This document shows positions 11,501 through 47,000 of a DNA stretch of 64,000 bases, piece after piece; positions within the stretch are counted from its first letter, which is position 1; every line of letters begins with the position of its first letter. The position numbers and the translations under genes are program-made. The stretch is from Dastarcus helophoroides (Eukaryota > Arthropoda > Insecta > Coleoptera > Bothrideridae): contig CM053337.1 of the NCBI GenBank assembly GCA_028583605.1, forward strand, positions 15,147,639 to 15,211,638. The letters run 5' to 3'. The notes beneath the pieces were generated by a model. The model worked only from the letters and a program-made list of their open reading frames with translations. It was not told the DNA's origin and ran no database searches.

Positions 11501-14500
11501 TAAATGTTCAAAATTTAAGTTAATGTTCAGGAAATTTTGCCTTATTTACGAAATTTTAATTTGTTTTATAAAAAAAGTCCAAATTGGTATATCTGACACC
11601 AAGGGCTGTACTCTCCTGCATAAAAATGGTATCTGGTACCTGCCACCCTAACGCAATGGGAAAGAAACTCGAACGTTCACCCAAATTATAAAAAAATTCG
11701 TCTTCCACCATAATCGCTATCATCCGAAGGCCCAATATGAACAACTGAACGAATTAAATATGATTTATATGTGATAAGCGACATCAATTTTTTATTGGTA
11801 GAACGGACTAGTCTTTTGTTATCTTCAAAAATGATACACAAATCTTGTCCCCTGAAATCAAGAAAGAATAAAAAATACAACAGCTGCTTTAACGCGTTTC
11901 GATAGCCAAGCTAAATGTCTAAAAATAAAGTCAATATTCTAGGAAATTTTGCCTTATTTACGAAATTTTAATTTGTTTTATAAAACAAGTCAAAATTAGA
12001 ATATCCGACATCAAGGGCTGTACTCTCTCACATAAAAGCGGTATCTGATACCTGCCACGTTAACGTTATGAGAAAGAAAGTTGACTGGTTACCCAAAATA
12101 TAAACACATTCTTCTCCCATTATAATCGTTATCATCCAAACACTCAGTATGAACGACTAAACGAAGTAAATATGATTGATATGTGATAAACGATATCAAT
12201 TTTTTTTTGTAGAACGGACTGATCCTTGGTTATCTTCAAAAATTGATACACAAATCGTGTCCCCTGAAATCAAGAAAAATTAAAAAACACAACAGATGCC
12301 CTAACGCTTTTCGATAGCCAAGCTATCATCTTCAAAGAGATTACTATTTAATTTATACGAAATTGAATTTAATTCTGAATTTTCAGTACTAACCTCTCAG
12401 CTGAGGCTGATTGTGGTAAGCTGCTCCAGCGCAAGAGTTTGACTCAGTTTTTCCATCTTACATCCCCGAAGGCGATCAATTCAAAAATTGGATTCCTTCT
12501 CACAAAATTGACACTTTAAATTTAAACTCGATCACTTTCTCTACAATTTGACTTAGCAACTTCTAATTTAATTAAATTAATTGAACTTTTTCCCAAACTT
12601 CCTATTTCTAATTTAGAAGTTGATTTTTTGTGAAACAATGTCGCCTTTTTTTTAAATTTTGAATTCAGTGTATAAAAAGTTAAAATCTTGACATAAATGT
12701 TTAAATTTCGATTTTTTGTAGCGTATAGCGTCTATATTTAGGATTTTTGATTTAAAACCCAATTTCCCAATAAAATAAAGTTGTTTCTAGATAAATCTCA
12801 ATTTTGTGATCAAAATTTTGAGATTGAGATTGAAATTTTGAGTTCGAAATTTTGGGATTGAAATTTTGAGATTGAAATTTCGAGATTGAAATTTTGAAAT
12901 CGAAATTTCGAGATTGAAATTTTGAGATCGAAATTTTGATATCGAAATTTTGGGAAACAACTTGAAGTTTCAGCATTAAGTTTCGAAATTGGCGACCAAA
13001 TGAAATCTCGATAATGTAATTTCGTTTCAGTTTTATCGATTTTATGAAAAATTGGAGCGCTTCTCTGGAAGATGAAAATGAACGAATATTGGATGTGGCA
13101 TTTTCCTCTGAGAGATCAATTCAAGATGAAATAGCGAGAGAATCTCAATCGGAAATTTTGACTGTCGTCATCAGCTATCTGGTCATGTTTATATACATTT
13201 CGGTGTCTCTGGGCAAATTTTCTTACCTGGTAAGTAGTTTTCTACTCACTTTTTCGCACGCTAAAATTGTATTTCACTTCTTACTTGTTTTTCCTTCTTA
13301 TAGAAATTCCCAGTCTACTGTTTTGTTTATTTTTTGATTTGTATTGTTAGCTCTAAAGTTCAGAATTTTAATACTATGGGCTTTTTTGAGAAACTTCAAT
13401 TTTTGTTCTCAAGAATTGGATTTTAATTTTTACTTTTTTTCCTAAATGTTCGATAGTTAAGTCAGTATTCTAGAAATTTTGGTTCATTTACGAAATTTTG
13501 ATTTATTTTATTTAAAAAGTCGAAATTGGTATTACCGACACCAAGGGTTGTACTCTCCCGCATAAAAGCGGTATCTGGTACTTGTCCATTAGGTCCGCTA
13601 AGTTGATATTATTCTATACTGATGAGGTCAAGGAATGTCGAAACTCCTCTCGGGTTGTTGGTTGCAAAAATGTTTAACTGTAGCACGTTCGACTGTTTCA
13701 GTACAAACTATTTAATTCACTAACAGAACTTCCTCTTTCTAAAAGTAGAAAAATTCTGGTTGGCTGGATCAGTAACGATCGGTGCCACGATCGTTATTGA
13801 TCATACGACTCTTTTTATTACAAAATATTGAATTGACTAACACAAACACTTCCTGTTTTTAAAGGCAAAAAAATTTGATTCGTGGAATCAATAACGATCG
13901 GTGTCACGATCGTTATATTGATACCAACAAGCAGCCAGGTGATCAATAAAGATCGGTGCCACGATCGTTATTGATTCCACCAATCTATGCAACCTTTCAG
14001 TCTGAGACCAAATTGCTGCTCGGTCTCGGGGGAGTTCTGGTGGTTCTCGCCTCCGTTCTGTGTTCCATTGGTATATGCGGCTACGTGGGGATCGCCACAT
14101 CTCTTCTGACCATTGAAGTTATCCCATTCCTCGTTTTGGCGGTCGGCGTTGACAACATATTCATCATAGTTCAAACTTACGACAGACAACCAAGGCACGT
14201 GATCCGTACGTATCATAGCGCGATTGTGTTAACCTCAGCTCGCTCAGAATTTCAGAAAATGTTGAAGACAACGTCGCTGAAGTCATGGCGAATATTGGCC
14301 CTAGTCTACTACTGACAAGTACCACGGAAATCTTCTGTTTTGCAATCGGTGAGTAAAACTTTGGTTTCAACTTTTTATTGCTCTTCCAACTAAGAGAGCC
14401 AAGAAGCGAAGCAAAGATGAAATTGGGGAAAAAAGAGGGATACTAAAAGAGACATTTTTAGAAAATTTAAACGTTTCTAGAAAATGTTTAATGATATTCT

Positions 14501-20500: not shown

Positions 20501-23500
20501 TGGGGTACCCGAATACATCAGATGTGGGGTAATGCTTTACCAGATCTGCTGTGACATGGAGTAGTACCGCAACAGATCTGGTGCGGTACCATGTCAGATG
20601 CGGTAACAGCTGCCATTTGTGATTACAGTTCATGGATGATCTCATGGGGATCGGTCCTCCAATATATTGGGTCACCAAGGGCAACGTGGATTACTCGAAT
20701 AAAAGTTTTCAACAAAAATTTTGCGGCTACTGCTGATTGTCCGGAAGATAGCATCGCTTCACAACTATTTTTAGCATCAAAGGTGTCCAATGTGTAAGTA
20801 TAGTCAAAATCGGATATAACGACATCGTTTACAGCGACGCATCGATTATTACGACTAACATGGCAATGTCCCGGCAGATTATTTTAAAAACTAACTGTAC
20901 TGACAGTTATATTGCTTATAACAACTACAGCGTCCTATAGTTTATGGTCCCTTCAATGTCGTTATATCCGGTTTCCACTGTAGTTGAAACTTCTGTCGTT
21001 TCTGTTGTCATTATTCATATTGAACAGGATATTATTCATATTGTCCGGATATTATTATCTTGCCCTGACATTATTTGTATTACCGGCAGTGCTGGATTTA
21101 CGTATAAGTCATACAAGCTATAGCTTAGGGCCCCTACCATCTTGGGGGACCCCAAATAGGGTTAAAGGCCTTTTTTAGTCGATAAAATTGTTAGTATGAA
21201 CCTTTTTTCATGCTCGCAACACTGACCCCATATCTCAACCAGCTTAGGGTCTCATCAAGTTTAAATCTGGTCCTGATTACCTGTCAATATTTACATTGCC
21301 TCAGCCTTATTGATTTTATCTAATTCGTATTTTAATTACTTAGTTCTTATGCAGTCAACGTCGGATATAACGAACTCCGCTTATAACGAACTTCGCATAT
21401 AACGAACTCCGCATATAACGAACTGCGCTTATAACGAATTGCGCTTATAACGAACTTCGCATATAACGAACTGCGCTTATAACGAACTTCGCATATAACG
21501 AACTTCGCATATAACGAACTTCGCATATAACGAACTCCGTATATAACGAACTGCACTTAGAACGAATTCCGTTTATAACAAACTGCGCTTATAACAAATT
21601 CCGCTTATAACGAACTTCGCATATAACGAACTCCACATATAACGATCTGAGCTTATAACGAATTCCGCTTTTGACGAGCACATAACGAACTGCGCTTATA
21701 AGGAACTTCGCATATAACGAACTCCGCTTATAACGAACTGCGCTTTTTGCATGTAACGAACTCCGCATAAAACGAACCACGCTTATAATGAACTCCGTTT
21801 ATAACGAGCTTCGCATATAACGAACTCCGCATATAACGAACTGAGCTTATAACGAATTCCGCTTTTAACGAGCATATAATGAACTACGCTTATAACGAAC
21901 TTCGCATATAACGAACTCCGCTTATAACGAACTGCGCTTATAACGAATTCTGCTTATAAAAATCTTTGCATGTAACGAACTCCCCATAAAACGAACCACG
22001 CTTATAATGAACTCCGCTTATAACGAACTTCGCATATAACGAACTCCGCATATAACGGACTCCGCATATAACGAACTCCGCATATAACGAACTGAGCTTA
22101 TAACGAATTCCGGTTATAACGAACTTCGCATATAACGAACTCTGCATATAACAAACTGTGCTTATAACGAAGTTCGCATATAACAAACTCCGCATATAAC
22201 AAACTGTGCTTATAACGAATTCTGTTATAAAAAACTTTGCATATAACGAACTCCGCATATAACGAACTGCGCTTATAACGAATTCTGCTAATAAAAAACT
22301 TTGCACATAACGAATTCCGCATATCACGAACTCCGCATATAACGAACTCCGCATGTAACGAACTGCGCTTATAACGGACTCCGCATATAACGAACTCCGC
22401 ATATAACGAACTGCGCTTATAACGAATTCCGCTTATAACGAATTTCGCATATAACGAACTCCGCATATAACGAACTGCGCTTATAACGAACTCCGCATAT
22501 AACGAATTCCGCATATAACGAACTCAGCATATAACGAACGGCCGCTTATAACGAACAAAGTTATGGTCCAAAATTCCATAAGAAAGTATGTATTTCGTGT
22601 TCGTTTATAACGAAAAATCGGTTACAACGAACTATTTAAAGATCCCCTTGGTGGATCGTTACATCCGAAGTTGACTATACATCCACGTAACATAAAAAAA
22701 CATACAAACCGCCAGCTTACCCATTTTTATTCCTCGTTTAATCAAATCAATGATCCGATTTTAGCACTTACATTGCCACTCAGTCCACGAATTGGGTGGA
22801 CGATTTCAACGACTGGAAATCCTCCGCAGATTGCTGCAAGTACTTCCCCCGAAATGACAGCTTTTGTCCAAATACGAATCCAGATTGTACGTCATGCGAG
22901 TTTGATCCAGGCAACGCGACGATATCAGAGGCAGACTATTTTAGAAAGTACTTTTCGTTTTTCCTGAGCGACAACCCGACCGCCAATTGTGGAAAAGGCG
23001 GCCACCCTTCATATTCCACAGTGAGTCAATTTTTTCACAAATTATTTTGTTACTACGTGCTCTCGTTGATTTTGGTGGAACGGACTGGTCCTTTGTTATA
23101 TTCAAAAATTGAAATACAAATCTTGTCCTCTGAAACCAAAAAAGATTAAAAAAACACAACAGAGGTTGCTCTAACGCGTTTCGATAGCCAAGCTATCATC
23201 TTCAGAGAGATACTATCTCACAACATAACAGAGGTTGCTCTAATTGCGTTTCGATAGTCAAGCTATCATCTTCAGAGAGATACCATCTCACAACATAACA
23301 GAGGTTGCTCTAATGCGTTTCGATAGTCAAGCTATCATCTTCAGAGAGATACTATCTCACAACGCAACAGAGGTCGCTCTAACGCGTTTCGATAACCAAG
23401 CTATCACCTTCAGAGCGTGTTTTTAATCTTTCTTGGTTTCAGAGGAGAAGATTTGTATCTCTATTTTAGAACGTTGATGTCTTATGTTTAATTCTGAACT

Positions 23501-26500
23501 GTCAACGCAGTGATCTAATAATTAGTAAAGTAGTTAATACTAAATATAGATTAGACAGTCGTAAACATTTGGAAAAATTTATTAAATCGGCAACCATCAG
23601 ATTTAACTTATATGTGGCAAACGAAAAGATCAATGAAAACGAGATTTAAAGAGCACATTCAAATCAGAAGCAACAGATGTGATAGTTATAGATTAATACT
23701 AATAATTTGAACTTGTTACGACCTGTTGCAAACGCTTTCGAACAGTTTTGAGGCCTCTGTCTTAAAAAAAAGTCTTCATTCAATTTGAAATACAGAACTT
23801 GTCCCCTGAAACCAAGAAAGATTAAAAACACAACAAAGGTTACTGGCTAACGCGTTTCGATAGCCAAGCTGTCATCTTCAGAGAGAAGCAGTTTCTCTCT
23901 GAAGATGACAGCTTGGCTGTCGAAACGCGTTAGAGCAACCTTTGTTGTGTTTTTTAAAGTTTCTTGGTTTCAGGGGACAAGTTCTGTATTTCAATTTTTG
24001 AAGATAACAGTCCGTTCCATCAAAATTCATTCAATTTGGTTAGGTAGTACCAAATCTGCGGCAAAAAGTAATCAAATTAATAAATACATTCAAACCTCAA
24101 AGATAGAGATGAATTATTATTTGTTTAGAAACTTGGGGAATTGATAGTTAATTCTTGGGGAATTGATAGTTAATTCCATTGCAGGGCATGGATTACGTTG
24201 TGGATGAAAATGGTGATACTAAAGTGCGCTCCTCTTACATATCAGCGTATCACACTATTTTAAAATCTTCCACTGATTACATAAACGCGTTGAAATACGC
24301 TCGACACATCGCTGATAACCTAACAAATTACTTGAATGTCCCTGAGGTGGAAATCTTCCCCTATAGGTAACATATGACTGATACTGGGACAGTGGGACAT
24401 ATACTCCAAGTTTGCAAATATTCTATTACTTTGTAGTGTCTTTTATGTGTACTTCGAACAATACTTGACGATTTGGAACGACGCTTCACTATCCTTAGGA
24501 TTATCGCTACTTCTGATATTCCTTACGTCCTTCGTTGTGATTGGTTTTAACGTGATGGCATCCACAATCATACTAGTAGTGGTGAGCATGACCACGTTGC
24601 ATATGATGGCGCTGATGTACCTATGGAACATACCCTTGAACGCAATCTCTTTGGTAAACCTAGTAATGGTGAGTATTGGGCTAGCAGTAGACACCAGAAA
24701 TCATCTTTGCAAGTGGCACGAGCAAGGAAGGGACTAAATACAAGGTCTATTTTATCACTATCGATGTGGGTGAAACTTCGACTTAGTTTCTTCCTTGCAC
24801 ATGTCACTTTGAAATATGATTTCGTAAACTTAATCTTAAGCCAGTGCTTTAAGACAACTGTTTTGCAACTAGCTTATTTGGTATGGAACAGTTACTAGGA
24901 TCCAGTTCCTAGGAATCATCTCTGCAAGTGTCACGAGCAAGGAAGGAACTAAATCCAAGGTCTATTTTATCACATCGATGTGGGTGAATCTTCGACTTAG
25001 TTTCTTCCTTGCACATGTCACTTGGAATTATGATTTCGTAAACGTAATCTTAAGCCAGGGTGTTAAGACAACTGTTTTGCAACTAGCTTATTTGGTATGG
25101 AACAGTTACTAGGATCCAGTTCCTAGGAATCATCTCTGCAAGTGGCACGAGAAAGGAAGGAACGAAGTCCAAAGAAGGTTTACCCCTTTATCACGTCCAT
25201 GTGGTAAAGGGGTAAACCTTTGGACTTCGTTCCTTCCTTTAAAGCTTGAACGTTGTTTGCAGTTTCTTTCTTGCTCATGTCACTTGCTAAGATGACTTCT
25301 TAAGTCTATTACACTTAGTTATAAACCTTAAGGCAACTATCCTGTTCTTTAAAGCAACTATTTTGTTACTGATTTATTTGGTATGGAACAGTAGGATCCA
25401 ATTACCAGAAATCAGTTCTGCAAGAAGCAAGGCAACGAAGAAACTAACTCCAAGGTTTACCACTGGAACACATCGATGTGATAAAGTAGTAAATCTTCTT
25501 AAACTTAATCATAAGTCAGTTCTTTAAGACAATTGTTTTGCAACTAGCTTATTTGGTATGGAACAGTTACTAAAATCCAGTTCCTAGAAATCATCTCTGT
25601 TAGTGGCACAAGCAAGCAAGGAACGAAGTCGAAAGAAGGTTTACCCTTTTACCACATCGACATGATAAAGGGGTAAAGCTTGGAAGTTGCGTGGAGTTTG
25701 TTTCTTGCCCACGTCACTTGCAAATATGACTTCTTAAATCTATTACACTTACTCATAAACCTTAAGGCAAGTATCCTGTCGTTTAAGGCAACTATTTTGT
25801 AACTGATTTATTTGGTATGGAACAATTAATAGGATCCAATTACCAGAAATCAATTCTGCAAGAAGCATGAGCAAGGAAGGAACTAAGGTCGAAGAAGATT
25901 TACCCCTTTACCACATTGATGTGATCAAAGGGTAAACTTCCTTAAACTTAATCATAAGCTAGTGCTTGAAGCCAACTGTTCTGTAATTGGATTATTTGGT
26001 ACGGAACAGTTAGGAGGATCCAATTACCAGAAATCAGTTCTGCAAGAAGTATGGGACGAGGAAGAAACTAACTTCAAGGTTTACCACTGGATCACATCGA
26101 ATGTGATAAAGGAGTAAACCTTCTTAAACTTAATCATAAGTCAGTGCTTTAAGACAACTGTTTTGCAACTAGTTTATTTGGTATGGAACAGTTACTAAAA
26201 TCCAGTTCCTAGAAATCATCTCTGCAAGTGGCACGAGCAAGGAAGGAACGAAGTCGAAAGAAGGTTTACCCTTTTACCACATCGACATGATAAAGGGGTA
26301 AAGCTTGGACGTTGCTTGGAGTTTGTTTCTTGCTCGTGTCACTTGCAAAGATGACTTCTTAAATCTATTACACTTACTCATAAACCTTAAGGCAAGTATC
26401 CTGTCGTTTAAGGCAACTATTTTGTAACTGATTTATTTGGTATGGAACAGTTAGTAGGATCCAATTACCAGAAATCAATTCTGCAAGAAGCATGAGCAAG

Positions 26501-31378: not shown

Positions 31379-31548
31379 ATGAGCGAGAGTGTTTCCAAAA
31401 TTCCGAGACCGGCCCAAATGAGAGGCTTTATGCGTAGCCAAATAAAACGGAATTTAATCCTCGCCTTCTGCAGTTGTACCGCCGCTGCTTTCTACATGAA
31501 GTTCATCTATGGGGATGGGAATAAGGCGAAGTACGCCGAATTCTACAA
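31379..31548 (+). CDS. COX6C: COX6C exon 1
   Basis: ATG to the donor gtgagt at 31549. Encodes MSESVSKIPRPAQMRGF through the transmembrane segment to AKYAEFY, plus AA of a split Lys codon (phase 2). Confidence 0.95.
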
Positions 31549-33420
31549 GTGAGTACTTTAGTGACGATTTTTTTTTTATTTCCAAGGATCTGTTGCTCTT
31601 CTGTAGTTTTTTCTCTGATCTCATACGACATCTATCGTGTTCTAGTGGCGAAATTTAAGTAGAACATTCCAAAAGAGCTTTTTATTTTCACCCTTCTTCT
31701 GTAGCTTTCAAACGCGAACTTCAGTAAAATTTTTCGTATTTTAGGAACAAGTTTTGCGAAAACAATTTTAACTAGAGAATTTTAAAAAAGTTAACTTTTT
31801 TTTTGATTGGTTGGTTAAATTAAGACAAAATTGTCGAATTGTTCCAAATTTCGGTTTCTGTTTCGGCCAGTTTCGGCCTCAGTTCGATTTCTGCTCAGTT
31901 AAAACTTCAAATTTTAAGTTTAAATTCGAACTTTTAAGAAGACCTAACATTTTCAGAAAAAAAACTTGTCATTTATAAAACGAGTTCGAGATTCTGTTTT
32001 TAAGTTGAACTTTTATAAAAAAAATAACTTTCAAGTTCAAACTAAGAAGTTTCATCAAAAAGTCGTAATTTAAAAAAACTAGAAATTAACAATAAAAGTA
32101 TGTTCTCAAATTTTTGGGTTTAATCAAGAAATATCTCGTTTTTTTCACGGTTCTGTATATACCGGTTATATCGAAAAATTACATGAATTTGGCACATTAT
32201 CAAATAAATACTTTTAAACATCAAAGGATAGAAATTTCAACAAGTTCTTTCAAAGTTGATTCACAAAGAGAACTCTCCTACGTTTAGAAATGACAATGTT
32301 AATTTAGGTTCACAGCTTTCAACTTTTTATCTTAGTTGAGTGTCTAAATATGAACTCGATTTTAAATATTTTTTACAAGGACTTCGCCTGCCTAAACGCA
32401 ACATAAAAGAACGACCATTAAAATAAATTCTTATGATTAGCTTCGTTATAAAAAAAGCTTTAAATATCTAAAACTTCCAGTAAAGTTTTAACTTGAGAAA
32501 ATGCTTGTTTTTGTTAATTTTTAAAAATGACAATTGTGGGCGCATTTGCCTAGGTCAGAGGTCAGGAAATCGCGGCTCGCGAGCCGCATGCGGCTTTTTA
32601 AATTCCTCTAAAAAGCTTGAATGGATAGACACTCAGAAAATGATTACTCATTAAACAAGTGACCTACAAACAAAATAGATATTAAAAAAGAAGACTAATA
32701 ATAATCAAAAAAAGGTGAGAGGAATAACCAGCCAAAATTTGTCGTGACGTACTGCTGCTCCTTGGCAAAAAGAGTTTAAATTTTGGCGATGACAAAAACG
32801 TCAAAGAAAATAAATGCACCATTTATTAAAAAAAAGTGCATTTGAACTGAAAAATCGTTTAGATAATAAGCCTTGTATATACGAATATATACAAGTTTAT
32901 TACGATGCAATTGAAATCTAATTTCATTAGAATCTAATGAAAATGAGACTGCAATTGCAAAGTTCACGTAGATGAGGCAAAGCTTGTATCACGGGTTGCA
33001 TCGCAACATCCATAGATACAAACGTCCTCGAGAGAGAGTAATGCTTCAATTAGCATGTGGCGAAAATGTTTGTGTAATAAACAGTTAAAAGTCAGTTACA
33101 AGTCACCCAATGGAGGTTTGCTCTCTTGGATACTTATACGACTGACTAACGGCTTTAAATTGGAAGTGTATACAACCACCGTACCATGCTGACGAGGCCA
33201 AGGAAGGCCGAAACTAGTCTATGGTTGCGGTTGTACATATTTTCAATTTTAAGCACGTTTAACTATTTAATTACAGAACATTTAATTGGTCATTTGTGAA
33301 AAATCGTTAACAAAAATAAATCTAATTTTGTTTATTTTTTTTTCCAGGAACTACGACATCGATAAGGAGTTCGAAATAATGAGGAAGAAAGGACTTTTTG
33401 ATTCCTGCGATAAGGATTAA
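31379..33420 (+). CDS. COX6C: Cytochrome c oxidase subunit VIc, complete, two exons
   Basis: Exons 31379-31548 and 33348-33420 give an 80-residue protein, close to the usual 75 or so. COX6C is a nuclear-encoded single-helix subunit of respiratory complex IV in the inner mitochondrial membrane. Family features seen: a basic N-terminus (RPAQMRGFMRSQIKRNL), one hydrophobic segment (ILAFCSCTAAAFYMKF), and the tail YAEFYKNYDIDKEFEIMRKK then GLFDSC. Start chosen at the first ATG (gaaATGa). It follows NPC1 on the same strand with its own upstream region. The 1.8-kb intron carries a hammerhead ribozyme candidate. Stop TAA at 33418-33420. Confidence 0.95.
32558..32605 (+). mobile_element. hAT-like terminus fragment
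   Basis: cagaggtcaggaaatcgcgg followed by ctcgcgagccgcatgcggct resembles the CAGNGGT...GCGGCTCGCGAGCCGC ends common in hAT-type non-autonomous elements. The opposite terminus and target duplication were not located, so this may be a solo end. Confidence 0.4.
33171..33235 (+). ncRNA. Type I hammerhead ribozyme candidate
   Basis: Core CTGACGA at 33189-33195; stem II GGCC/GGCC (33196-33199 with 33206-33209) with loop AAGGAA; GAAA at 33210-33213; stem III A-C paired with G-U around loop TA; cleavage triplet GTC at 33217-33219. Stem I pairs 33083-less? no: 33183-33188 (accatg) with 33220-33225 (tatggt), then an internal loop (33178-33182 against 33226-33228), then 33171-33177 (tacaacc) with 33229-33235 (ggttgta). 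All conserved core nucleotides are present and the stem I internal loop is where loop II contacts occur in active type I ribozymes. It lies in sense orientation in the COX6C intron, and its 3' flank is shared with 13.7 kb and 37.4 kb. Confidence 0.82.
33348..33420 (+). CDS. COX6C: COX6C exon 2
   Basis: Acceptor tttttccag. The G completes Lys, then NYDIDKEFEIMRKKGLFDSC and three more residues before TAA. The conserved YDxxKxFExMRKxGxFxS pattern of COX6C is evident. Confidence 0.95.
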
Positions 33421-37190: not shown

Positions 37191-37812
37191 ACAAAAAATC
37201 GAAATTTTTCCATTAAATTCAAAATATTGACAATGGTTAAGGCCGAATTAAATTAACGATCTTTTTTGAATTGGATTTCAATGAAACAACTACGATGTAG
37301 GATGTAACCAATGTTACAATGATCACCAGTGGTATTAAGGGTTGTCGCACAACAACAATCTCCAGCGTCGCATTTGTTGTAAATATTATCAACTTTGGCG
37401 CGTTCAACTGTTTAATTACAGAACATTTAATTTGTCGTTCAAGAAAGTCAATCAAGTTTAAGTTCTGCGAAGAAAATAACGTCAAGGTTAAACCACAGAA
37501 GGTTGAAATTTCGAGAAAAACTGAGAAATTTGAAAGAGGTATCTACCCTAAGATTGATAAGACTGATAACTGATCTTAGAAGTAAAAAACTTTATCCGTA
37601 TAACGATCAATGCAAGGAATTGTATAAGTATTAACAATTTCTGTCAAACTATACATCAAATTCCCCAGTAGCATGCAAAAATTTTCAACGACATTATCCC
37701 AAAGAGTGCCCTAAATATAACACAAAAAAAAAACACGTGCCTTATGTAAAAACTTAACAACATTCACATCAAAAGTCAGAATTTTTTATTTTTTTCTAAT
37801 TTTCCTCGCTTG
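37191..37812. other. Region between the satellite and the nvy stop codon
   Basis: 37290-37450 contains a diverged relative of the hammerhead-bearing element's 3' flank (cgcgttcaactgtttaatta cagaacattt), but the ribozyme core is absent. 37785-37790 on the minus strand is AATAAA, 23 nt past the nvy stop, a candidate poly(A) signal. Confidence 0.5.
37785..37790 (-). promoter_or_regulatory. Candidate nvy poly(A) signal
   Basis: AATAAA on the minus strand just downstream of the nvy stop codon. The distance (23 nt) is short and the region is T-rich on the plus strand, so a chance match is possible. Confidence 0.35.
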
Positions 37813-44000: not shown

Positions 44001-47000
44001 ACATTTTCAAAATGTTTACGAATATTTTTAAATCCTAATATTTTTCTAAAAATGTTAGTCTTTGGAAATTTATATAAAAATATCGATATTTTTGAAAATT
44101 TCGTATTTTTCAAAAATGTCAATTTTTAAAAATTTTTTAATTTTTCTTTCAAATTGTCGCTTAAATTTAGATTTTCTTTCTAATTTTTGACATCTTTTCA
44201 AAATGTTTTTTTGGTCAAAATTTTGACTTCTTAATATTTCGATTTTATTTGAAAATTCCTTTGACAATATTTTGATTTTTTTCAAAACCTAGACTTTTGG
44301 AGAATTTCGTTTTTATTTGAAAATTTCTTTGTATTTGTTTAAAATTACAATGTTTTTTTTTGAAAATTTTGACTTTTTCAACATTTTTGCGATTTTTTTT
44401 AAATTTCAATTTTCCTCTAAAATTTTTATTTTCTGGAAAAATATGTAAAAATATAAATATTTTTGAAAATTTTTATAAAAAGTGAAAATTTTAAAAAGGG
44501 GAGATATTTTCAAAAAGAATCCAATTGTAAAAAAATTATACCTTCGAGAAAAAGTCGAAACCTTAATGATAAAACGTTGACATTTTCAAAAAAAATCAGA
44601 AATTCTGAAAAAATTCGGAAATTTTAAAAAGTCGCAATTTTGAAAAAAAATCTATTATTCAAACAAAAAGTGAATATTTTTGAAAAAGAGTGGAATTTTT
44701 TAAACAAACGCCCAATTTACTTCACAAAAATCAAAACTGTGGGAAAGAGACAAAATTTCCGAAAAAATGTCGAAATTTTGAAAAAAATTCGAGAATTTCA
44801 AAAATTCGCAATTTTGAAAAAAAATCGATTTTTCAAAAAAAAGTAAAAATTTTTGGAAGAGTCGAATTTTTCAAATAAAAGCCTAAATTATTTCATAAAA
44901 GTCTAAAATTTGAGAAAAAGAAAATGTTTGAAAAAAAAGTCGAAATTTTCAGAAAATTGAATATTTTGAAAATTTCGACATTTTTTTCATATATTTTTTT
45001 TGAATTGTCTACTTTTAAGAAATAAATTAGGTTTTTTTTTGAAAAATTCGGCTCTTCCAAAAATTGTAACTTTTTTGAAAAATTGATTTTTTTTCAAAAT
45101 TGCAACAAAAAGTTTGAACAAAAATTGTCGAAATTGTCAAAAAAAATAAATATTTGGAAAAGTGGTAGAGGTTTTCCAGAAAACAACATTTTAAAAAACC
45201 ATATTTAATTAAAAAAACCAAAATGTTGAAAAAATCAAAATTTTCAGAAAATAGCTTTGTGTCAATTTTTTTACAAAAAGACGAAATTTAAAAAAAACGT
45301 AGAAATTAAAAAAAATTAAATTCGTTCTAAAAAAAGTTATAACTCCGAAAAAAAGACGACATATTGGTGATAAAAGGTCAAAATGTTCAACAATAAAAGG
45401 TGAAAATTCTGAAAAAAATCAGCAATTTTAAAATGTCGCAGTTTTGGAAAAAACCAATTTTTCAAAGAAAGGTGAAGATGTTTGTAAAAAAGCCAAAATT
45501 TTTACAGTCGAGTTTTTTTAAAAAATTTTTGTCGCTTTTTTTTAAAGTTTGACTTTTTAATATTTCGATTTTATTTGAAAATGTTTTTGACAGTATTTTG
45601 ATTTTTTTCAAAACCTAGACTTTTGGAAAATGTCGTCTTTTTTTGAAAATTTCTTGTATTTGTTTAAAATTACTCAGTAATCATAGGTAGCCAAACTACC
45701 AACAGTGAACCCACCGACGTTTAGCAGAAGTGACTCTCTGGCAAAGTCCAGAGTGTTACTCTCATTCCTAGTCTAACGAGATTTAACAAGATCGAGGTTT
45801 GGGAACCAAACACCAAAGAAGATTTATCAGATCCAGAGTTTGGGCACCAAACAACAAAGTTTGAAGATTTATCAGAACCAAAGTTTAGGAACCAAACATT
45901 GGATCTGATAAATTAAATCAAAAACTTTGGTGTTTGGTTCCCAAACTCTGGATTTAGTAAATTTAGAAGATTTGAAAGATTGAAGACTTATCAGATCCAG
46001 AGTTAGAGAACCAAACATTGGATCTAATAAATAAAATCAAAAACTTTGGTGTTTGGTTCCCAAACTCTGGATCTAGTAAATTTAGAAGATTTGAAAGATT
46101 GAAGACTTATCAGATCCAGAGTTAGAGAACCAAACATTGGCTCTGATAAATAAAATCAAAAACTTTGGTGTTTGGTTCCCAAACTCTGGATCTAGTAAAT
46201 TTAGAAGATTTGAAAGATTGAAGACTTATCAGATCCAGAGTTAGAGAACCAAACATTGGATCTGATAAATAAAATCAAAAACTTTGGTGTTTGGTTCCCA
46301 AACTCTCGATCTAGTATATTTAGAAGATTTGAAAGATTGAAGATTTATCAGATCCAGAGTTAGAGAACCAAACATTGGATCTGATAAATAAAATCAAAAA
46401 CTTTGGCGTTTGGTTCCCAAACTCTTGATCTTATAAATCTAGAAGATTTGAAAGACTGAAGATTTATCAGATCCAGAGTTTTGGAACCAACCGAATCTGA
46501 TAAATCGTCAAATCGTATTTGGTTCCCAAACTCCGAATCCGATAAATCTTCAAGCTTTAAAGAGACTAATTTATATTAAGAGAGGGGGCAACTCACCGCT
46601 CAGGAGCTTCTCCATTTTGGCCTTTTCCGCCGCGACCAGCTCGTTGGCTTTGGTCTCGGCAGCCGCCACCGCTTTCTGCAGTTCTATCACAGCTTGCCTC
46701 TTGACGTCGTTGACGGCCTCTTCCGCCCTCCTTTTCACTTCGGCCACTCGCTCTTCTGTTTGTTTGACGGCTTGCACCATGATTTCGTTGGCCGCTTTCT
46801 TCAAGTCGACGCTCACGTCTTGTTTCCTTAGCCATTCGTTGGTGAGGTCTTGGTTGTTCCTCTGTTGGAGTATCGTGAGGGCTCTTTTCGTTTTTTCGAC
46901 CATGGAGAGGATACAGTTGAGCATGACGTGGATGTTCTTCCATTCTTCGTCGACTCTGTTAGTGGAGGGGTCCTCTGGACGTTGCTGGTGTTGAGCGTAG

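What the first reader, a model, noticed from the sequence alone, without database searches (positions are those of the whole stretch)
33171..33235. Complete type I hammerhead ribozyme in the COX6C intron
Every invariant core nucleotide is present (CUGACGA, GAAA, GUC), stem II is four perfect pairs, stem III is a 2-bp stem with 2-nt loop as in retroelement hammerheads, and stem I has 6 bp (one G-U), an asymmetric internal loop and 7 more pairs. Chance occurrence of all these is very unlikely. In sense orientation it could cut the COX6C intron after C33219. Related flanks at 13.7 and 37.4 kb point to a dispersed retrozyme or Penelope-like source.
Basis: partly seen in the sequence, partly recalled or inferred. 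Interest (0 to 1): 0.87.

Follow-up and report, generated by a model that had tools for sequence, protein, structure and literature searches.

The report
Beetle hammerhead retrozyme inserted by twin-priming
The self-cutting RNA motif in this beetle gene is one copy of a small jumping element that probably copies itself through an RNA ring, and the shape of its copies suggests that a Penelope-type enzyme starts copying the ring at two fixed points, one for each strand of the cut DNA.

Summary
The hammerhead at 33171-33235 is real as sequence and structure (1 descriptor hit in the window, 0 in 300 shuffles) but misses Rfam's gathering score. It lies in an insertion, 32860-33296, in the last COX6C intron of a beetle, with a perfect 12-bp target duplication. 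At least 40 identical copies of the region lie elsewhere; the unit is 466 bp, partly in tandem: a non-LTR retrozyme. Stem III is better read as a 6-nt palindrome (ACUAGU), as in dimeric hammerheads.

The surprise is the architecture. In 35 mapped insertions all 54 cDNA starts fall at two points of the circle (22 at P1, 32 at P2). All 19 two-ended insertions, the COX6C copy included, are antisense-then-sense with one end at P1 and the other at P2; inner junctions vary. The two cDNAs of one insertion agree better with each other than with other insertions. A second, 377-bp family (4 of 4) and an RT plus GIY-YIG Penelope-like element (3 of 3 fetched, plus two old window copies) show the same two-point ends. 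Best reading: a Penelope-type enzyme twin-primes one RNA circle at two sites. Transcription, cleavage, circularity and enzyme are inferred; two of three fetched Penelope-like copies are perfect palindromes, which this does not explain.

The parts
33171..33235 (+). Type I hammerhead ribozyme (stem I outer and inner, internal loop 5/3, core, stem II)
   Evidence: covariation with family 2
33213..33218 (+). ACUAGU, palindromic stem III sequence; predicted cut after C33219
   Evidence: sequence; palindromes ACCGGU and ACGCGU at the same place in the other two hammerhead families
32860..33296 (.). Whole retrozyme insertion in the COX6C intron
   Evidence: mapped on the 466-nt circle and bounded by the duplication
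32848..32859 (+). Left copy of target duplication TGAAAAATCGTT
   Evidence: (D15)
33297..33308 (+). Right copy of target duplication TGAAAAATCGTT
   Evidence: (D15)
32861..33030 (-). Antisense segment: cDNA started at P1 (circle 192 down to 23)
33031..33032 (.). Strand-switch junction, 2-nt filler
33033..33302 (+). Sense segment with the hammerhead: cDNA started at P2 and stopping just at P1 (circle 466 down to 197 by alignment; the last 6 nt are shared with the duplication)
31379..31548 (+). COX6C exon upstream of the intron
33348..33420 (+). COX6C last exon
13614..13717 (+). Old diverged copy of the family (circle 348-451), hammerhead decayed
37375..37441 (+). Old diverged copy ending at P2 (circle 393-460)
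23071..23471 (.). Old insertion of Penelope-like element B end sequence with minimal hammerheads; left end at S2, right end near S1, 7-bp duplication CGTTGAT by eye
23782..24024 (.). Second element B insertion; left end at S1, right end at S2, duplication CATTCAATTTG by eye; minimal hammerhead at 23899
23582..23677 (+). Fossil of a Penelope-type GIY-YIG endonuclease
   Evidence: 54% over 33 aa, E 2.6e-4

Best explanation
The motif is the hammerhead of a non-autonomous, non-LTR retrozyme. Proposed cycle: copies are transcribed, hammerheads (likely in pairs through the ACUAGU palindrome) cut the RNA into 466-nt units, and a host ligase closes them into rings (inferred). A Penelope-type RT with GIY-YIG endonuclease cuts both strands of AT-rich DNA about 12 bp apart. 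It primes one cDNA from each DNA end on the same ring: one at P1 (circle ~194-197), the other at P2 (~460-466). Each RT runs round the ring a variable distance, sometimes several laps. The two cDNA ends are then joined with 0-3 bp overlap or a few added bases, which leaves an antisense-then-sense insert between duplications. Shown by sequence: insertion, duplications, two fixed starts, one per end, variable junctions, multi-lap copying, likeness of the two cDNAs. Inferred: transcription, cleavage, ring closure, and the identity of the enzyme.
For: 54 of 54 cDNA starts in 35 insertions lie at P1 (22) or P2 (32); 19 of 19 two-ended insertions are P1+P2 (about 1e-6 if each end chose freely). Target duplications in 22 of 35, 18 of the 19 two-ended; control 8 of 1190 mismatched flank pairs. 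Junction coordinates never within 20 nt of each other on the circle (0 of 19, 1.7 expected). 23 of 54 cDNAs exceed one lap, longest 3.13 (L004, with an internal gap), next 2.94; no stop at the ribozyme cut site. Outside the selected hammerhead region the twin cDNAs of one insertion differ at 0.8% of compared positions, laps of one cDNA at 1.7%, different insertions at 3.3%; 0 of 500 resamplings as low for either. Family 2 (377 bp): 4 of 4 two-ended copies with ends at 149 and 370-377. Penelope-like element B (RVT_1 and GIY-YIG above cut-off): three copies fetched because they were inverted pairs each have one end at S1 and one at S2, about 36-40 nt apart, duplications 9-14 bp, and a minimal hammerhead with palindrome ACGCGU. 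A purified Anolis Penelope-like enzyme cuts and extends both strands and starts internally at two sites (PMC11167929).
Against: No RNA or enzyme data. The retrozyme circles show no convincing sequence similarity to element B, so the enzyme is named by architecture alone. Two of the three fetched B copies (L051, L052) are almost perfect palindromes whose arms meet at one coordinate; that looks like snap-back or hairpin synthesis, not free joining of two cDNAs, though their outer ends differ. P1/P2 lie 196/270 nt apart, not 30-40 as in Penelope tails; in the Anolis assay the two strands did not differ in start site. Laps of L004 and L021 differ a lot (55 of the 79 lap differences). By the rule, 3 of 3 P1-only and 9 of 13 P2-only copies have no duplication. 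Gene conversion between the arms could also make twins alike. Loci were chosen by an identical hammerhead region, which favours P2 starts.
Confidence: 0.74

Rival explanations
1. The template is a long multimeric transcript of tandem genomic copies, not a ring; the same enzyme twin-primes it internally, and the ribozyme plays no part in transposition.
For: In the Anolis element ribozyme mutants still insert and unprocessed RNA is called the dominant substrate (PMC11167929). No cDNA stops at the cut site.
Against: 23 of 54 cDNAs run past one unit, while 30 of the 35 mapped insertions are shorter than two units and 19 hold an inversion; the 19 inversion junctions all differ, so none was inherited from another mapped copy. 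Laps within most insertions agree closely. I did not search the internal gaps of L004 and L025 for carried-over flank.
Confidence: 0.16
2. A LINE-type element mobilises it, and the inversions are ordinary L1-like twin priming.
For: Target duplications and inverted 5' parts occur with LINEs (recalled); LINE-like RT pieces are seen in the flanks (by eye). A 2024 review names LINEs or Penelope-like elements as possible helpers (PMC11722881, passages).
Against: Ordinary twin priming inverts at scattered places (recalled); here both starts are fixed and never the same at both ends. Element B shows two fixed end points too.
Confidence: 0.06
3. The inverted form arises by snap-back self-priming of one cDNA (the reading offered for Penelope head-to-head repeats on an antisense template, PMC3846280).
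For: Head-to-head repeats with palindromes at the junction in rotifer elements (passages); element B copies L051 and L052 are almost perfect palindromes of 3.5 and 3.3 kb.
Against: In the retrozyme 0 of 19 junctions join circle positions within 20 nt, and the two outer ends are two different fixed points. In L050-L052 the outer ends differ too, which simple snap-back would not give (inference).
Confidence: 0.07
4. The hammerhead has been kept for a host role in COX6C intron processing.
For: Sense orientation, intact core.
Against: The region is identical to at least 40 other copies and the insertion has a perfect 12-bp duplication, so it looks recent; no orthologous intron could be compared.
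Confidence: 0.03

Closest known systems
Metazoan non-LTR retrozymes with type I hammerheads (Cervera and de la Pena 2020, PMC7229834)
   Same: Short tandem repeats with a type I hammerhead, target duplications over 4 bp, highly self-paired circle; insects named among hosts.
   Different: 466 and 377 bp (abstract: RNAs of about 170-400 nt; text: repeats of 150-450 bp). The words 'inverted' and 'twin' do not occur in that paper's main text, and the 2020 review says the repeats show no motif that points to the autonomous partner (PMC7761336).
Penelope-like elements with inverted pLTR and tail (PMC3846280, PMC11167929)
   Same: Antisense-sense copies, two RT start points with one end longer than the other, target duplications of similar size, AT-rich targets, hammerheads.
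   Different: The retrozyme is non-coding, shows no convincing similarity to element B, and its two starts are 196/270 nt apart on a circle.
Rfam RF02275 Hammerhead_HH9
   Same: Core, stem II and stem I internal-loop layout align end to end.
   Different: Scores 22.7 and 34.4 bits, below the gathering score of 52; the 5-nt loop of stem III is missing.
Newt and axolotl satellite hammerheads
   Same: Very short stem III with palindromic loop, more active as dimers (PMC7229834).
   Different: Different host, unit and sequence; dimer action not tested here.

Membership tests
Type I hammerhead ribozyme | Invariant core CUGANGA / GAAA / NUH with three stems, open at stem I | tested here: met
   stems covary between families, 4 pairs changed on both sides, reached by 4 of 500 shuffles (5 rows). 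Stem III only as a dimer or 2-bp stub
Type I hammerhead ribozyme | Curated covariance model at gathering score | tested here: not met
   RF02275 22.7 bits, gathering 52
Type I hammerhead ribozyme | Self-cleavage | not testable with these tools
   no RNA or assay
Metazoan non-LTR retrozyme | Dispersed short repeat with hammerhead, often tandem | tested here: met
   42 listed matches, 466-bp spacing
Metazoan non-LTR retrozyme | Target duplications larger than 4 bp | tested here: met
   22 of 35, 10-14 bp by the rule used; 13 of 35 none
Metazoan non-LTR retrozyme | RNA size about 170-400 nt | tested here: not met
   unit 466 bp for family 1; 377 bp for family 2 fits
Metazoan non-LTR retrozyme | Expressed as circular RNA | not testable with these tools
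   no transcriptome; circular template inferred from laps
Penelope-like element (autonomous) | RT and GIY-YIG in the element itself | tested here: not met
   a 466-bp unit is too short to code for them; not filed as a Penelope-like element. Element B meets it
Mobilised by a Penelope-like element | Insertion signature: antisense-sense copies, two fixed RT starts, one per end, AT-rich target duplications | tested here: met
   but inner junctions of L051 and L052 differ in kind from those of the retrozyme
Mobilised by a Penelope-like element | Shared RNA sequence or start-site motif with the partner | tested here: inconclusive
   no convincing blastn match; UCAAA at both P2 and S2 by eye only

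The most novel reading that the evidence does not exclude
Animal retrozymes are circular-RNA parasites of Penelope-like elements, and the Penelope integration complex works as a paired machine: two RT units bind two designated sites of one RNA, each engages one of the two cut DNA ends, and both copy the same RNA away from those sites. The 'tail', the inverted pLTR and the retrozyme ends would all be results of this one asymmetric double start.
Probability: 0.5. Interest if true: 0.87.

Novelty: new variant of a known kind. Interest (0 to 1): 0.73.

Why it matters
A 2020 review states that the repeats give no clue to the machinery that moves animal retrozymes (PMC7761336), and how Penelope-like elements come to be inverted is left open (PMC3846280, passages). 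The insertion ends read here offer such a clue and turn both questions into one test: an enzyme, a ring RNA and a cut DNA, with predicted start points. The genome holds young copies, two retrozyme families and a candidate partner with long open frames.

Tried and rejected
Rfam at gathering score gave nothing. Snap-back self-priming was tested for the retrozyme and disfavoured. Clustering of P2-primed stops at P1 (6 of 32 in 183-197) is suggestive, but a scan-corrected simulation gives p 0.065, so it is not used as proof. 'Both starts lie in hairpin loops' holds in the family 1 fold; in the family 2 fold both points lie at or near unpaired bases but not in hairpin loops, so I do not claim a loop rule. 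A first regex missed the element B hammerhead because of a bulged U; one search corrected this. A duplication test on the two window B insertions taken as one gave none; taken apart, duplications were seen by eye. Papers not held: PMC4209133, PMC5785218, PMC8557442. Nothing on twin priming of retrozymes was seen in the listings; subscription papers are mostly absent from that library.

Rows dropped: L006 (same site as L005); HSPs under 85% identity; clusters under 100 bp; in L011 an 86% older copy and in L008 a small piece left of the insertion; for segments under 60 nt, 8 nt at each segment end, overlaps under 15 nt and circle 314-424. L017 enters as many pairs. One search counts motif hits in overlapping loci twice (L005/L006, L019/L038). 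Family 2 pieces in L034 (2548-2699, 3075-3256), L047 and L027 were not classified. Odds lowered on checking: the palindromic B copies L051 and L052 were first left out of the evidence against, so confidence went from 0.78 to 0.74 and the novel case from 0.55 to 0.5.

Full report
Site. The hammerhead is at the stated place with every stated part. A strict descriptor (6-bp stem I, 4-6-bp stem II, GAA, short stem III, NUH) hits once in the window, on the plus strand at 33189, and never in 300 dinucleotide shuffles. Rfam gives no gathering-level match in the window; on 170 bases the best is RF02275, 22.7 bits, E 0.0011. It is in the sense strand of the intron between COX6C exons 31379-31548 and 33348-33420. 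The 80-aa protein is closest to beetle COX6C (Asbolus 71%, Tribolium 65%; 14 hits), so the host is taken to be a beetle.

The insertion. A 111-base query around the motif finds 42 listed matches in the own 539-Mb assembly, 40 of them 100% over the whole query; 1008 candidates were seen and only 40 scored, so this is a lower bound. Neighbouring matches lie 466 bp apart. I fetched the loci of all 42 matches, 34 sites on two contigs (C1, C2), and added the window: 35 insertions. Mapped on a natural 466-bp unit (L005:1188-1653), the window copy runs antisense from circle 192 to 23 (32861-33030), has 2 filler bases, then runs sense from 197 to the end at P2 (33033 onward), between two copies of TGAAAAATCGTT.

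Two start points. If a leftmost antisense segment or a rightmost sense segment is read as the start of a cDNA, the 35 insertions give 54 starts: 22 at circle 192-205 (P1; 194 and 197 commonest) and 32 at 458-466 (P2); none elsewhere. Nineteen insertions have both ends: all 19 are P1 at one end and P2 at the other. With the overall usage and free choice, that has a chance of about 1e-6. Thirteen are P2-only and three P1-only. Because the loci were chosen by an identical stretch at circle 314-424, the single-ended numbers are biased towards P2; the pairing rule is less exposed to this. Among the older pieces outside the selection listed, two have an end at these points: L011:739-850 at 197 and window 37375-37441 at 460. 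The others (window 13614-13717, and weak matches in L011 and L012 that belong to family 2) say nothing.

Target duplications. By one fixed rule 22 of 35 insertions have a duplication (10-14 bp, median 12, 75% A+T), against 8 of 1190 mismatched flank pairs; 18 of the 19 two-ended insertions have one (L018 with one mismatch), L030 does not. Of the single-ended, 4 of 13 P2-only and 0 of 3 P1-only have one. In L019 the retrozyme sits inside a Penelope-like ORF; with the flanks joined the frame reads through and aligns with relatives, which shows the empty site.

Junctions and template. The inner junctions pair circle coordinates that are never within 20 nt of each other (0 of 19; 1.7 expected) and show 0-3 bp of overlap or 1-8 added bases. 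This argues for end joining of two cDNAs and against snap-back in the retrozyme. Twenty-three of 54 cDNAs are longer than 466 nt; the longest is 3.13 laps (L004, which has an internal gap and unlike laps), the next 2.94 and 2.90 (L017, L020); none stops at the ribozyme cut (380-388). Outside the selected region the two cDNAs of one insertion differ at 33 of 4272 compared positions, laps of one cDNA at 79 of 4671 (55 of the 79 from L004 and L021), different insertions at 13198 of 402770; no resampling of 500 was as low. So both cDNAs were most likely copied from one RNA molecule, read round and round. Gene conversion could imitate this. The unit as a circle folds far better than shuffles (-152.4 against -98.3 with sd 5.4, 100 shuffles).

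A second family. A search of the fetched DNA for related motifs showed another hammerhead, CUGACGAGAUCUAACAAGAUCGAAACCGGUA, in a 377-bp unit; RF02275 34.4 bits, E 6e-7. Four two-ended copies were seen (L036, L037, L048, L052); all have one end at 149 and the other at 370-377, with 9-14-bp duplications. They turned up beside family 1 or Penelope-like loci; L036 and L037 were fetched to complete two of them. Between the families the stems covary: on 5 rows, 4 pairs have changes on both sides (4 of 500 shuffles; slid controls 0-1), 89% of cells paired. Six of the 7 broken cells are in the old 13616 copy.

Stem III. Families 1 and 2 and the Penelope-like element B have ACUAGU, ACCGGU and ACGCGU after GAA. 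Of 75 motif hits in the DNA held, 74 are palindromic, though 60 of them are the one family and some loci overlap. A dimer with a 6-bp stem III is the natural reading; more activity as a dimer is published for axolotl hammerheads with a short stem III (PMC7229834, Results parts 1-2 of 3 read) and, by title only, for Penelope-associated ones (Lunse 2017, not held).

Penelope-like elements. Open frames in L019 match RVT_1 (5e-14) and GIY-YIG (0.0016, below cut-off); the RT is nearest to beetle proteins with RVT_1 and PF26215 (189 hits). The genome search with this RT scored 141 of 2425 candidates. One group is mostly 81-95% identical to L019. A second (B, 54-55%) makes up 40 of the 141 rows; 14 of these 40 lie as 7 inverted pairs, minus then plus, about 1-2.3 kb apart. 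Three such pairs were fetched. Each has one end at S1 (GUGUUUCAAUU) and one about 36-40 nt further at S2 (CCAUCAAA), with duplications of 14, 9 and 12 bp. The B protein has RVT_1 and GIY-YIG above cut-off and the element a minimal hammerhead. Two old B insertions in the window, 23071-23471 and 23782-24024, also have one end near S1 and one at S2. This is like the inverted pLTR with a tail on one side described for rotifer elements (PMC3846280, passages). The Anolis enzyme cuts and extends both strands and starts at two internal sites (PMC11167929, parts 1-2 of 4); there the two strands did not differ in start site, which does not fit the strict rule seen here.

A result against the unified picture. 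L051 and L052 are palindromes (99.7% and 99.5%) whose arms meet at one coordinate, a different one in each; only L050 has unequal arms. That is what snap-back or hairpin synthesis would give, and the free joining of two cDNAs would not. Yet their outer ends differ, which simple snap-back would not give. So the B copies share the two-point ends with the retrozyme but not, in two of three, the kind of junction. I have no explanation for this.

What is known and what is new. Retrozymes with type I hammerheads in insects are stated in print, and Penelope-like elements are named as likely helpers from co-occurrence (PMC7761336, passages and section 7; PMC8969392, passages; PMC11722881, passages, which also names LINEs). 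The fixed two-start, one-per-end insertion signature on a circle, seen in two retrozyme families, I did not find in the searches listed under Tried and rejected. Most subscription papers are missing from that library, so this is no proof of absence.

Limits. No RNA, no enzyme, one genome, no genome-wide count, and, for family 1, loci on two of 50 contigs plus the window. The retrozyme circles show no convincing similarity to element B; its role is an inference from the insertion ends.

Noticed in passing
L011, L012, L034, L036, L037, L048, L052; old pieces in window 46515-46553 and 45679-45706: A second retrozyme family of 377 bp with its own hammerhead and the same two-point insertion ends.
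   Followed up: partly
window 23071-24024: Two old Penelope-like element B insertions with minimal hammerhead motifs about 70 bp apart (motif hits at 23205, 23275, 23344, 23881 on minus and 23899 on plus), and a GIY-YIG fossil between them.
   Followed up: partly
L051, L052: Almost perfect 3.5- and 3.3-kb palindromes of element B whose two outer ends differ (S1 and S2); neither twin priming with free joining nor simple snap-back explains both facts.
   Followed up: no
C1:40525807/40527999, C8:3483238/3485039, C10:20984904/20986085, C3:25315200/25316738 (element B); C1:45329688/45330213, C11:30703888/30705199, C46:40413/41002, C3:4473839/4474581 (group of L019): Further head-to-head inverted RT pairs, minus then plus; not fetched.
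   Followed up: no
L019:1906-2157: A retrozyme copy inserted inside a Penelope-like element's coding region, a nested insertion in a relative of its presumed helper.
   Followed up: yes
circle positions 183-197, P2-primed cDNAs: Six of 32 P2-primed cDNAs stop at or just before P1, as if blocked there; p 0.065 after scan correction.
   Followed up: partly
P1, P2, S1, S2: P2 and S2 both read UCAAA at the start point, and P1 and S1 have UCA there; noted by eye from four sites, not tested.
   Followed up: no
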